A stretch of DNA of 49,026 nucleotides. Source: Mediterranea sp. (in: CFB group bacteria) (GTDB taxonomy: Bacteria > Bacteroidota > Bacteroidia > Bacteroidales > Bacteroidaceae). This document shows, piece by piece, positions 9,958-47,921 of this stretch (the stretch's first letter is position 1; the number at the start of each line of letters is the position of its first letter). Below the pieces are notes generated by a model. That model made no database searches. It saw only the letters and a program-made list of their open reading frames with translations, and had not been told where the DNA came from. The stretch covers positions 1-49,026 of the forward strand of contig JAISHU010000104.1 in the NCBI GenBank assembly GCA_031262385.1, read 5' to 3'. A program made the translations under genes and the position numbers.

Positions 9958-10038
9958 TTCTTTAATAGTTGTCGGATAATATCCTGTTTACGCATCAAAA
10001 TGTCACAATATTGCGCTTTCTGCTAACTCGTACTTTGC

Positions 10039-10073
10039 AAAAAAAGAGTGCTCAGCCGGAAGACAACGCACTC
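10039..10073 (-). terminator. Minus-strand terminator-like hairpin beyond the repeat element
   Basis: Read on the minus strand, GAGTGC, a 16-base loop and GCACTC are followed by seven T residues. It lies past repeat copy 1 in the direction of the PepSY-like gene's transcript, so that transcript could run through the whole repeat before stopping here. The stem is only 6 bp. Confidence 0.45.
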
Positions 10074-10082
10074 CGAAGCCGT

Positions 10083-10494
10083 AGCCAATTCGTTGCAAAC
10101 GCGAAAACAACGAATCAACTCGGCGGAAACAACGAATCATCCGCACGAAAACAACGAACTGTCGGCACGAAAACAACGAATCAACTGCCGGCTTAGCAAA
10201 TTATCCCGGCAAGTTAAGCTGTATTTCCCGGCAAATTATTGTGTTATCCCGGCAAGTTATCACGCTAACTTGCCGGGATAATTTCATAAAGTTCTTTTTG
10301 AGGCTGTTTTTTCGCGCTGAAGGCGCTTTTTGTTTCTTGACATAATTTCTTCATATCTTTCTGTAAGTATGCGGATTAAATAGCGTATTTTACATAGTTT
10401 AACGCGCTATACTCGCACGAAAGTCACCAAGCCGTCCCTTAGTCCGAAATAAGCCCGTTTTTCGAGGGTTCGTTTGACGTTTTGACACTTTGTC
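10083..10494 (-). repeat. Phased non-coding repeat element, copy 1 (inverted)
   Basis: About 410 bp between convergent genes, the inverted homologue of 26050-26457. In minus-strand order it has block A (GTCAAAACGTCAAACGAACC at 10467-10486 and TAGCGCGTTAAACTAT at 10394-10409), block B (TCAGCGCGAAAAAA at 10307-10320), block C (five sites of the type TTGCCGGG, centred near 10273, 10251, 10230, 10208 and 10188, in both orientations) and block D (four units containing AAACAACGAA on the plus strand, starting at 10105, 10127, 10149 and 10171, exactly 22 bp apart). No convincing ORF is present; the tracks at 9969-10196 and 10048-10281 are chance frames. The rest of 9958-10636 shows nothing else I can name. 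Confidence 0.85.
10244..10281. repeat. Perfect 16 bp inverted repeat inside element copy 1
   Basis: TTATCCCGGCAAGTTA, a 6-base spacer and its exact reverse complement. It consists of two facing C-block sites. In copy 2 the outer bases of this palindrome are kept but the left core is flipped, so the two sites there become direct repeats. This suggests the TTGCCGGG core is a recognition word and not merely a stem. Confidence 0.85.
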
Positions 10495-10636
10495 AATGGA
10501 TGCGTCTCCCAACTTCTACCCGTACACGACCTGCCAAAAAAGGGAAACCGCCCTCTCCCTTTGACAGGAAAAGACAGTCTCCCGGATATAGAAACGAAGA
10601 TTAGATATAACTAACGACCCTTTCTATCTTATATAT

Positions 10637-26049: not shown

Positions 26050-26457
26050 TTGTCATTTTGTCAAAACGTCAAACGAACCCCTCGAAAAACGGCTGTTTTA
26101 CGGACTGAAGTACGGCTCGTGACTTCCGATGCCCGTGTAGCGCGTTAAACTATCTAAAAAATAGGGCTTAATGTGCACTCATCCAGAACGATAAGCTCCA
26201 AAAATCTTTGCGAAGAAAAAGCGTGCTCAGCGCGAAAAAAAGTCCCCGAAAAGAACATTCCGAAATTATCTTGCCGAGTTAGCGCGATAACTTGCCGAGA
26301 TAAATCAACAATTTGCCGAGACAGACAGCTTAACGTGCCGGGAAAAATAGTTTTCCCGGCAGCCGGTTCGTCATCTCCGTGTAGTTGATTCGTTGTTTTC
26401 GCGCAAACAGTTTGTTATTTCCGTGCAAACAGTTTGTTGTTTCCGCGCAAACAATGC
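26050..26457 (+). repeat. Phased non-coding repeat element, copy 2
   Basis: About 400 bp between convergent genes, homologous to 10083-10494 in opposite orientation. Block A is at 26060-26079 and 26138-26153, block B at 26227-26240, block C has five TTGCCGAG/TTGCCGGG-type sites centred near 26274, 26295, 26316, 26338 and 26358, and block D has four units starting at 26370, 26392, 26414 and 26436 (GTTATTTCCGTGCAAACAG-like), exactly 22 bp apart. The A-to-B gap is 73 bp in both copies. The rest of the gap, 26458-26604, shows nothing further. Confidence 0.85.
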
Positions 26458-26604
26458 ATTAAAAACGGGGCAAGAGCAGATTGCCTCCGTTTAAAGAGCG
26501 ATTTTCCACAAAGTGACGGTTAGGGAAAAAGGCAAAAAGACGACAGATTGATAGGATGAGGCGAGAAATAGTTTCTTTTTAAAAAAACACATCCCTCCCC
26601 GCCT

Positions 26605-32920: not shown

Positions 32921-33080
32921 TTAACTCGGCAAGTTAACACGCTATATCGGTAGTTTATAGCGATTATTCCGGCAAGTTATTTTATTATCTCAGTGATTCA
33001 CGTTTGTCAAACAAGTGATTCACGTTCGCCAAACAGGTGATTCACAAATGCCAAACAGGTGATTCACAAACGTCAAACAA
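32921..33080 (+). repeat. Phased repeat array, copy 3 (C and D blocks only)
   Basis: Between convergent genes. Three C-type sites (CTCGGCAAGTTA, a degenerate ATCGGTAGTTTA, TCCGGCAAGTTA) are centred near 32928, 32949 and 32971. Four D units starting at 32993, 33015, 33037 and 33059 follow, exactly 22 bp apart. Each D unit opens with the palindrome GTGATTCAC, has a variable middle of about 6 bases and ends CAAACA plus A or G. Blocks A and B are absent. Confidence 0.85.
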
Positions 33081-33106
33081 GGAGTTGCCGCAATGAAACA
33101 CTTCTT

Positions 33107-45182: not shown

Positions 45183-47543
45183 ATGAAAAGAAACACAATT
45201 CTATTGTTTATTATGGCAGCGGTCGTTTTATTGACCGGCTGCTTGGGGGGCAATGTCTATGACCCGACTAAAAAGCCGGAAATTCCTCCCACAGAAAACC
45301 CGTTAGGAGAAGGCTTCACCGCCCCGCCCAGCTTCGATTGGACCATGTACAAGAGTATATCGCTTACCGCCGAAGTGAAAGACGAATTTAACGGGCAATA
45401 CAACTACTTGATAGAAGTTTTTGCGCAAAATCCACTGCTTACTTCTACTGCTACTCCCATTGCCACAGGCGTTGCCGGAAAAGGACAAAATTATACGGCA
45501 ACTTTGATTCTGCCTATACCGGCTACCGAACTGTATATACGTAAAACCGACCCCAAACAGCGCAAAGAGACCTATGCGTTTACTGTTCCCGCAGCATCGG
45601 GCAGTATCACATGCAAACTCTATCCCGGTGGCGCCGCTACCCGCGCAGTGGGCAGCAGCACGGCGGCTGTAGATGCGGCAAAAGCAGAAGGATTCAGCGA
45701 GCCGGAGGTTGACCCCAAAACGTGGTTTACACTGCCGAGTAACTGGACAGAACTACCTAAACAGGATGGCAGGAATGAATATCCGGGGGGTAGCAACTTT
45801 TTGATTGAAGGTACCTTTAATCGAGAAATTAATGCGAGTACGAATAGCGGTCGTGTCAAGGTCTATGTAAAAGGTACATGGGCTATCCCAACGAATGAAA
45901 TCCAGAGCAATTTGGACATTTATGTACTCAACGGAGGTAAAATTGAAGTTACTAAGGATGGATTCCAATTTGGGAAAGCATGTTCTATCTCCGTACAAGA
46001 AGGGGGTACAATAGATATTAAGGTAGCCAACAATGTAACCTTTCAAGATGCACCCTTTTACAACTTCGGCACGTTGAAATCGGGGACTAATGCCACCATA
46101 ACGTTTGGTGATAATATGGTGCTGAACTATGGCGATATATTAGTAAAGAAAAAAATGAAATTTGTTTCAGCAACAGTATCCAATCACGGTACTATCTCCG
46201 TCGATGAATGGCTGGACACCAATACTCCCAAAGATAAGTATTGGGTAAACTGGAACAGTGCCACTATCAAAGCGTACAAATGGACTGGTGGCGGTACTAT
46301 CTATAACGATGGATTTATAGAAGTAACCTTGCGCGAGAGTGCCACGGATGAGTTTATCTATAATGCTTGCACAATCATTGCCAAGGAGTCGTTTGACTTT
46401 ATTAAAATGACCTTAGATAAAGGTTCGTTGACCTCCGGACAAGACAGTAACGGGAAATGGCTTCCTGTTCCTTTAGTTACTTCACCGTATTCGACTGAAG
46501 TTACCATGAAGAACGGTTCGTTAATCAAAGCGACCAACTTGTTTTTCACAAATGGTGGTAGTACCGTAACAGGTGTTTCAGGTGGTGATATCTCCATGCT
46601 AAAAGCAGGAACAATCGAACTTGGAGAATACAACTGGGATACTCGGATAAGCGGAAATCTTGTATTGGAAAGAGATACAGTAATCAGTCCGAACGACAGT
46701 CAATGGAGTTCGTGCTTCCATGCCGAAGGCATCCCCACCACCGGTTACGACGAATCGCAATACACCGTAGAAACCTGCGGCGGTATACTCAACGAAGGCA
46801 ACGAAGGAGAGACTCCCACCAATCCCACTTATCCCCTTGTGACCGACGACGATACGGGTTATACCTTTGCTTTCGAAGACAACTGGCCTGTCTACGGCGA
46901 TTTGGACTTTAACGATGCGGTAGTCTCTATCGACAACATCATTACCGAACAACGTGCCGACGGCTCGCTGCAAGCAGCTACCATTAAAGGTAGTGTACGG
47001 GCTGTGGGTGCTTCGAAAACGCTGACTCTCGCTCTGCGTATGCAGACGATTCCCAACAGCTATCAGCTAATCAGTTCCGACTTGCATCGCTTTATGGGCA
47101 ACGCAACAGGCGACAACGAATTTATCAATACGAAAAAGGGAGGCTATACAAAGACACCCGCAACCTTTGAGGTGAAATATACCTTTAGTGGTACATCGGT
47201 GATGCCCGTCGACTTCAATATTAATATGGTGGATTTGTATATCTCGACCCCCTCGTGGAGCAACAAAACCATGTCCATAGAGATACACCTTCCCGATATT
47301 GCCCCCACCGACAAAGCCGACCCGAAACTATTCGACACGGGCGACGACGCTTCTACGTTGGAAGGTTACTACCTCAGCAAAGAGCGAATAGCATGGGCTA
47401 TCATGATTCCCGCTCCGTTTGCATGGCCGCTGGAATATAAAAATATTAAAGACGTATATCCCGACTTCAAGAGTTGGATAACCTCCGGCGGTACAAATAA
47501 TCCCGACTGGTATCAGAATCACAACGGCGATGTGTTTGAATAA
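45183..47543 (+). CDS. LruC domain-containing lipoprotein
   Basis: 786 residues from ATG 45183 (ATG 45171 is an alternative). MKRNTILLFIMAAVVLLTGC is a lipoprotein signal. Residues about 210-515 hold beta-helix-like, Gly/Asn-rich strands. The C-terminal region has the LruC/DUF4842 hallmark YTFAFEDNWPVYGDLDFNDAVVSIDN near residue 560, a calcium-binding-like acidic loop, then KGSVRAVGASKTLTLALRMQ, and ends with EGYYLSKERIAWAIMIPAPFAWPLE and NPDWYQNHNGDVFE. It is likely displayed on the outer membrane. It stands alone with a strong terminator. Function unknown; some relatives occur with adhesion or surface-fibre genes. Confidence 0.82.
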   Translation: MKRNTILLFIMAAVVLLTGCLGGNVYDPTKKPEIPPTENPLGEGFTAPPSFDWTMYKSISLTAEVKDEFNGQYNYLIEVFAQNPLLTSTATPIATGVAGKGQNYTATLILPIPATELYIRKTDPKQRKETYAFTVPAASGSITCKLYPGGAATRAVGSSTAAVDAAKAEGFSEPEVDPKTWFTLPSNWTELPKQDGRNEYPGGSNFLIEGTFNREINASTNSGRVKVYVKGTWAIPTNEIQSNLDIYVLNGGKIEVTKDGFQFGKACSISVQEGGTIDIKVANNVTFQDAPFYNFGTLKSGTNATITFGDNMVLNYGDILVKKKMKFVSATVSNHGTISVDEWLDTNTPKDKYWVNWNSATIKAYKWTGGGTIYNDGFIEVTLRESATDEFIYNACTIIAKESFDFIKMTLDKGSLTSGQDSNGKWLPVPLVTSPYSTEVTMKNGSLIKATNLFFTNGGSTVTGVSGGDISMLKAGTIELGEYNWDTRISGNLVLERDTVISPNDSQWSSCFHAEGIPTTGYDESQYTVETCGGILNEGNEGETPTNPTYPLVTDDDTGYTFAFEDNWPVYGDLDFNDAVVSIDNIITEQRADGSLQAATIKGSVRAVGASKTLTLALRMQTIPNSYQLISSDLHRFMGNATGDNEFINTKKGGYTKTPATFEVKYTFSGTSVMPVDFNINMVDLYISTPSWSNKTMSIEIHLPDIAPTDKADPKLFDTGDDASTLEGYYLSKERIAWAIMIPAPFAWPLEYKNIKDVYPDFKSWITSGGTNNPDWYQNHNGDVFE

Positions 47544-47830: not shown

Positions 47831-47833
47831 ACC

Positions 47834-47921
47834 GTCCGACCAACGTCGTACGAGCGTCCGACGATGGTTGTACGACCGTACGACGTTGGTCGGACGCTCG
47901 TACGACGTTGGTCGGACGGTA
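47834..47921. repeat. Phased repeat array 4, with 11 bp sub-repeats
   Basis: Four units of exactly 22 bp begin at 47834, 47856, 47878 and 47900. Each splits into two 11-mers, and all eight 11-mers begin GT and have AC at positions 6-7 (for example GTCCGACCAAC, GTCGTACGAGC, GTACGACGTTG, GTCGGACGCTC). Units 1-2 and 3-4 face each other, giving a 32 bp perfect inverted repeat (47831-47862 with 47889-47920). It lies between two plus-strand genes. Confidence 0.85.

What the first reader, a model, noticed from the sequence alone, without database searches (positions are those of the whole stretch)
10083..10494. A 400 bp non-coding element present in two inverted copies with conserved block order and spacing
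The minus strand of 10083-10494 aligns with the plus strand of 26050-26457 from end to end. Shared exact blocks include GTCAAAACGTCAAACGAACC, TAGCGCGTTAAACTAT, TCAGCGCGAAAAAA, GATAACTTGCCG, ACAGCTTAAC and GTTGATTCGTTGTTTTCG, in the same order. The gap between the TAGCGCG and TCAGCGCG blocks is 73 bp in both copies. Neither copy codes for protein, and flanking genes differ. This is a dispersed structured element, not chance, and I know no name for it. It could be a non-autonomous mobile element, a conserved RNA 3' module or a chromosome-organising site.
Basis: seen in the sequence. Interest (0 to 1): 0.88.

Follow-up and report, generated by a model that had tools for sequence, protein, structure and literature searches.

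The report
Genus-wide Bacteroides repeat, 22-bp phased array
The two matching stretches belong to a repeat found in about 90 places in this gut bacterium and, in altered form, in about a third of the related Bacteroides species tested; its two ends are conserved, while its middle is a different sequence in each lineage but keeps the same 22-letter rhythm, which suggests that the spacing matters more than the letters.

Summary
In detail: the two inverted copies align at 74% over 370 nt. The element is larger than quoted (about 515 nt; window 9980-10496 and about 26050-26535). In this genome it occurs 85-87 times, between genes, without preferred gene orientation. 57 full-length copies align without an indel, yet no two exceed 92.6% identity, and their alleles are in linkage equilibrium beyond about 20 bp: heavy recombination among copies. 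A sequence model of the first ~147 nt ('leader') finds it in 52 of 160 genomes of the genus but in one of about 390 other genomes of the order. Species examined share the plan leader, interior with 22-bp periodicity, tail (GTGTCAGC); the 22-bp unit differs by lineage while leader-to-tail length stays near 380-400 bp. The leader has no RNA structure; AA/TT in the arrays has an 11-bp period. Related species share several positions, one locus lacks the element in two species, and flanks are exchanged at copies elsewhere. No coding capacity, target-site duplication, transposase partner or Rfam match. Closest known: the BrickBuilt MITE of Porphyromonas gingivalis (leader, 23-nt minisatellite, tail). 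Most likely a non-autonomous, BrickBuilt-like repeat acting as DNA; what the array does is unproven.

The parts
9980..10496 (-). copy A, full element (about 515 nt; 5' end at 10496)
   Evidence: alignment with 57 full-length indel-free copies of the same genome
10342..10487 (-). leader of copy A (conserved module, genus-wide)
   Evidence: sequence-only model R1, 101 bits, E 1.2e-30
10244..10281 (.). 38-bp palindrome TTATCxCGGCAAGTTA.../...TAACTTGCCGGGATAA at the start of the array
   Evidence: self-match on the opposite strand; in about 60% of copies the left arm core is flipped to TTGCCG
10201..10260 (-). first 22-bp tandem units (CTTGCCGGGATAA type)
   Evidence: Tandem Repeats Finder period 22
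10101..10186 (-). second 22-bp tandem units (GATTCGTTGTTTTCGC type)
   Evidence: Tandem Repeats Finder period 22; identity at lag 22 in copies 0.52 vs 0.26 at other lags
9980..10040 (-). tail of copy A (GCAAAGTACGAGTTAGCAGAAAGCGC...)
   Evidence: landmark 449 nt from the 5' landmark, as in most copies
26050..26535 (+). copy B, a divergent copy of the element
   Evidence: 74% to copy A; tail landmark at 432 instead of 449, 9 mismatches
26059..26201 (+). leader of copy B
   Evidence: model R1, 53 bits, E 1.2e-15
26392..26453 (+). 22-bp tandem units of copy B (GTTGTTTCCGCGCAAACAGTTT)
   Evidence: Tandem Repeats Finder

Best explanation
Both stretches are copies of an old, non-coding, non-autonomous interspersed repeat of the genus Bacteroides with the plan leader (about 145 nt, conserved sequence) - array of about 22-bp units (sequence particular to each lineage) - tail (GTGTCAGC-like). 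It spread between genes by a copying mechanism whose enzyme is not identified (MITE-like, in lineage-specific expansions), is then inherited in place, and its copies recombine with one another: alleles are shuffled and flanks are sometimes exchanged at copies. It acts as DNA, not as folded RNA. Shown: copy number, architecture, genus-wide range, 22-bp phasing, allele shuffling, shared positions, one locus without it. Inferred: that spread was by a transposase acting in trans, and that the phased array is a platform for a DNA-binding protein or curved DNA.
For: 85-87 copies in G000, both strands, reversed-pattern control 0. 57 copies without indels; landmark distance 449 nt in most copies and 427-428 in four. 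Max pairwise identity 92.6%, 102-108 common polymorphic sites, r2 0.22 within 5 bp and about 0.02 beyond 60 bp. Leader model: 52 of 160 genus genomes, 6-87 copies in most carriers tested, 2 of 393 order genomes including G000 itself. 22-bp identity peak in nearly all of 23 genomes with different units. Leader without RNA pairs. Shared loci among G007, G094, G085, G139, G089; G034 and G095 have only 173 bp between flank matches where G007 and G085 have the element; flank exchange at copies. Same architecture as BrickBuilt (PMC4596501).
Against: No target-site duplication signal (own-pair longest match 5.19 vs 5.27 shuffled); terminal inverted repeats are weak (TGACA-like motifs); no copy carries a transposase; not found on phages or plasmids with a distant-mode DNA search. 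Constant length, absence of indels and positions shared between species suggest host constraint beyond a decaying MITE. The locus lacking the element may be a deletion rather than an empty site.
Confidence: 0.6

Rival explanations
1. The element is primarily a host chromosome element: a helically phased array (two turns per 22-bp unit) that binds a nucleoid or regulatory protein or is intrinsically curved, with selection on spacing and length while the unit sequence drifts or co-evolves with its binder.
For: 22-bp period and leader-to-tail length near 380 or 400 bp kept across species with different units; AA/TT power at 11 bp 6.9 vs 1.5 in flanks and 2.9 +- 0.5 after register shuffling; predicted bend 10.5 vs 6.2 deg/turn, above shuffled in 20 of 23 genomes; no indels in 57 copies; shared positions; at one locus G094 has a different 44-bp (2 x 22) array where G007 and G085 have the element.
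Against: G000 itself is not predicted to be curved (4.8 vs 6.4), and the 11-bp power exceeds 3 in only 12 of 23 genomes. A tandem array also keeps its period passively by unit duplication. Copy number varies from 0 to 87 between species, and many complete genomes of the genus show none at this sensitivity.
Confidence: 0.25
2. A transcribed structured RNA or terminator module.
For: The arrays have strong folding potential on both strands (mean z -3.1 and -3.3); a 16-bp-stem palindrome in G000.
Against: The conserved part (leader) has no consensus structure and z near 0. In about 60% of G000 copies the palindrome arm is flipped so that the hairpin is lost. Gene orientations are balanced: 17 divergent, 15 convergent, 31 co-directional. 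No Rfam match. Array folding is symmetric on both strands, as expected of repeated DNA palindromes.
Confidence: 0.07
3. A derivative of an iteron-type plasmid origin (leader plus 22-bp iterons) scattered in chromosomes.
For: Iteron arrays of about 22 bp beside a conserved segment are the plan of such origins (general knowledge; review PMC4980987 seen as a hit, not read).
Against: No match in 72,556 plasmid records with a leader query; no replication-initiator gene seen in any copy; units are imperfect and often inverted.
Confidence: 0.03
4. Assembly artefact: chimeric repeats in a fragmented metagenome assembly.
For: G000 is a 171-contig, 84%-complete genome, and several contigs break inside the element.
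Against: Linkage decays within about 20 bp, shorter than assembly k-mers; the same architecture occurs in near-complete genomes such as G007 and G089.
Confidence: 0.02

Closest known systems
BrickBuilt MITE of Porphyromonas gingivalis (Klein et al. 2015, PMC4596501)
   Same: Leader + tandem minisatellite without spacers + tail; always intergenic; no coding capacity; imperfect repeats; loci shared between strains; restricted host range.
   Different: 23-nt instead of 22-nt unit; 19 copies in one species; 12-nt terminal inverted repeats matching IS5-family ISPg elements (not found here); strongly variable unit number (1-22.8), whereas here length is nearly constant. The leader model R2 matched only one of about 390 other genomes of the order, so homology to BrickBuilt is not indicated (Porphyromonas could not be named in that sample).
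REP/BIME elements with RAYT transposases
   Same: High-copy intergenic palindromic units in alternating orientation, recombining copies (general knowledge).
   Different: REPs are short (20-40 nt) and have no long conserved leader; RAYT presence was not tested here.
Intergenic 11-bp AA/TT-periodic DNA (E. coli, PMC516772)
   Same: AA/TT with about 11-bp period, between genes.
   Different: A statistical property, not a discrete repeat with leader and tail.

Membership tests
[quoted passage not shown]
   about 515 nt, 85-87 copies, no codon periodicity of variants
[quoted passage not shown]
   G000 ends ATCAAAGTGTCA / ATCATAATGTC are similar; genus-wide only TGACA-like motifs, direct and inverted scores 6.55 and 6.25 vs 6.03 shuffled
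[quoted passage not shown]
   own flank pairs share no more than shuffled pairs, 5.19 vs 5.27 +- 0.12; end positions are fuzzy, so short or eroded duplications could be missed
[quoted passage not shown]
   no transposase between leader and tail in about 70 readable copies, but the genome is 84% complete and no systematic comparison with insertion-sequence ends was made
BrickBuilt | leader - tandem minisatellite - tail, intergenic | tested here: met
BrickBuilt | 23-nt repeat unit with GAGACCTTTGCA-type terminal repeats | tested here: not met
   22-bp period and other ends (PMC4596501)
Rfam structured RNA | match to a family or conserved covarying structure | tested here: not met

The most novel reading that the evidence does not exclude
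A genus-wide chromosomal element whose conserved property is helical spacing rather than sequence: a leader and tail frame an array of 22-bp units that each lineage has replaced with its own 'word', kept at nearly constant length and shuffled among copies, possibly co-evolving with a DNA-binding protein that organises the nucleoid.
Probability: 0.2. Interest if true: 0.88.

Novelty: new variant of a known kind. Interest (0 to 1): 0.7.

Why it matters
No description of such a repeat in Bacteroides was found in the open-access papers searched. It is about 1.7% of this genome, occurs across many species of a major gut genus, breaks assemblies, mixes alleles among dozens of loci, and appears to be a site of rearrangement. 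Conservation of a 22-bp phase without conservation of the unit sequence makes it directly testable whether chromosomes keep DNA elements defined by spacing.

Tried and rejected
RNA module: no consensus pairs, no orientation bias, no Rfam match. Coding element: common variants show no codon periodicity (40/38/30 by position), and the open frame of about 100 aa is closed in many copies. Autonomous transposon copy: four odd loci (L070, L115, L129, L135) were read; three have truncated copies next to other genes and L135 a divergent tail. Plasmid or phage carriage: no matches to one 145-nt leader query. Target-site duplication: no signal. Orthologous-site comparison at the GlsB locus (copy B) failed because the neighbouring gene was not found in any relative fetched. 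The first alignment mixed strands and was redone.

Full report
Observation. The minus strand of 10083-10494 and the plus strand of 26050-26457 do align: score 264 against at most 34 in shuffles, 74% over 370 nt, E 9e-58. The quoted blocks, their order and the 73-bp gap are right. Aligned with its other copies, copy A is longer than quoted and spans about 9980-10496. Model R1 later found only these two leaders in the window.

Copies in this genome. The window is contig C135 of a 2.6-Mb, 171-contig genome. The 5' end TGTCAAAACGTCAAACGAAC occurs 85 times with up to 3 mismatches (42 forward, 43 reverse), with 0 for the reversed pattern; the leader model finds 87 places. At about 515 nt each this is about 1.7% of the assembly. 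Eighty copies were fetched with flanks. They lie between genes in all orientations: 17 divergent, 15 convergent, 31 co-directional. Several contigs end inside a copy, so the true number is probably higher.

Anatomy. 5' end (CTTATCAAAGTGTCAAAACGTCAAACGAACC), leader, a 38-bp palindrome built of TTGCCGGGATAA units, then 22-bp units of a second word (GATTCGTTGTTTTCGC), then a tail (GCAAAGTACGAGTTAGC...GACATTATGATGCG). The distance between 5' and tail landmarks is 449 nt in most copies and 427 or 428 (one unit less) in four. Beyond the tail the sequence continues in at least two versions, one an 8-mer array (TGCCAATATG...).

How the copies relate. 57 full-length copies align without an indel. Mean identity is 0.847 and no pair exceeds 0.926, so there are no recent twins. 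108 sites have a second allele at 15% or more, and 75 of them have at most two copies with a third base, balanced transversions included. r2 is 0.22 within 5 bp, 0.06 at 6-20 bp and about 0.02 (the value expected by chance for 57 sequences) beyond 60 bp; 98% of distant site pairs show all four combinations. This is the mark of reticulate exchange among copies (gene conversion); an assembly artefact would keep linkage over a k-mer length. Some alleles are local flips of a palindromic core (CGGCA to TGCCG at 212-216, complete linkage).

Range. A DNA search in 60 relatives found only a 5'-end match in G025, but G025 proved to have its own family of about 20 copies with a homologous leader and tail and another array. 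A sequence-only model of the leader from both (R1) matched 52 of 160 genomes of the genus. The broader model R2 gave 87 copies in G000, 52 in G035, 21 in G025, 15 in G007, 13 in G089, 12 in G072, 11 in G085, 10 in G083, 9 in G022, 6 in G094, 1 in G066 and none in five others. In 393 genomes of the order only G000 itself and one genome of another genus of the same family matched at E 1e-5. By an exact-pattern scan G025 probably corresponds to Bacteroides sp. RGIG8771, and G083 to a MAG named Mediterranea massiliensis SIG138 (same 95,892-base contig).

The array. In 23 species-level loci the interior has its highest self-identity at lag 22 (17 cases), at 44 or 43 (5 cases), or at 33 tied with 22 (1 case); identity at lag 22 is 0.34-0.66 against about 0.25 at lags 12-20. 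The units differ between lineages, e.g. ACTTTTGGCCGAAAAGT-like in G025, GAAAACATACAATCTGACGAGG-like in G007 and G139, GACCGCGGTGTTTTTGCAGACG in G141. The leader-to-tail distance clusters at about 380 and 400 nt across species. AA/TT dinucleotides in the arrays have a period of 11 bp (power 6.9; flanks 1.5; register-shuffled 2.9 +- 0.5, max 4.5) and predicted bending is above shuffled in 20 of 23 genomes, but not in G000 (the wedge parameters were written from memory, so this is indicative only). An 11-bp AA/TT period concentrated between genes is known from E. coli (PMC516772, abstract seen).

RNA or DNA. The leader alignment gives zero consensus pairs and folding z-scores near 0; arrays fold strongly and equally on both strands, as repeated palindromic DNA would. 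The element is therefore read as acting at the DNA level (inference).

Inheritance, absence, rearrangement. Among G007, G094, G085, G139 and G089, loci with conserved flanks carry the element at the same place (leader identity 0.66-0.96), so it is often inherited in place. At the locus of L288, G007 and G085 have the element, G034 and G095 have 173 bp between the flank matches instead of about 666, and G094 has a different 44-bp array. In G007 the left and right flanks of copy L279 are found at two different copies in G085 (L296 left 96.7%, L297 right 86.5%), while L297's left flank matches another G007 copy (L284): flanks were exchanged at the element, consistent with recombination between inverted copies; the fourth junction was not recovered. 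G000 and G025 share at most one of 15 sampled loci.

What it is. The nearest described element is BrickBuilt of P. gingivalis (leader, 23-nt minisatellite, tail, intergenic; PMC4596501). The architecture matches; the unit length, ends and near-constant length differ. MITE membership is not established: no target-site duplication signal, weak terminal repeats, no autonomous partner seen. I therefore call it BrickBuilt-like and leave the mobilising enzyme open. Whether the phased array has a host function is the main open question, with the curvature/binding model as the leading rival.

Noticed in passing
window 32921-33081: A leaderless intergenic array of 22-bp units (GTGATTCACAAACGCCAAACAG) preceded by the same TCGGCAAGTTA word as the main element: a second array type in the same genome sharing vocabulary.
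   Followed up: partly
window 47831-47918: Another 22-bp-period array, strongly palindromic (GTCGTACGACCGTACGACGTTGGTCGGACG), downstream of the gene ending at 47543.
   Followed up: no
flanks of many G000 copies, e.g. L131, L133, L088: Degenerate 8-mer arrays (TGCCAATATG, TGCTAATG) and a GTGCACCGCCTCATTAGCACATTA repeat abut the element on one or both sides; probably separate dispersed repeats.
   Followed up: partly
L321 (G094, locus of L288): Where G007 and G085 have the element, G094 has a different array of 44-bp (2 x 22) units without a recognisable leader.
   Followed up: partly
L223 and L229, next to GlsB in G133 and G075: Intergenic tandem arrays of about 42 bp (2 x 21) and 22 bp with other sequences; 21-22-bp arrays may be common in the genus beyond this element.
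   Followed up: no
L115 and L091 (G000): Two loci share 807 bp of left flank at 88.6% identity; in L115 the element is truncated after about 97 nt and followed by another gene (protein of 318 aa, SPFH-like by eye).
   Followed up: partly
L281 2427-3909 (G007): A sequence of about 1480 bp present in nine near-identical copies in G007 and 93% identical in G089 (probably an insertion sequence) lies about 65 bp from an element copy; its ends were not compared with the element.
   Followed up: no
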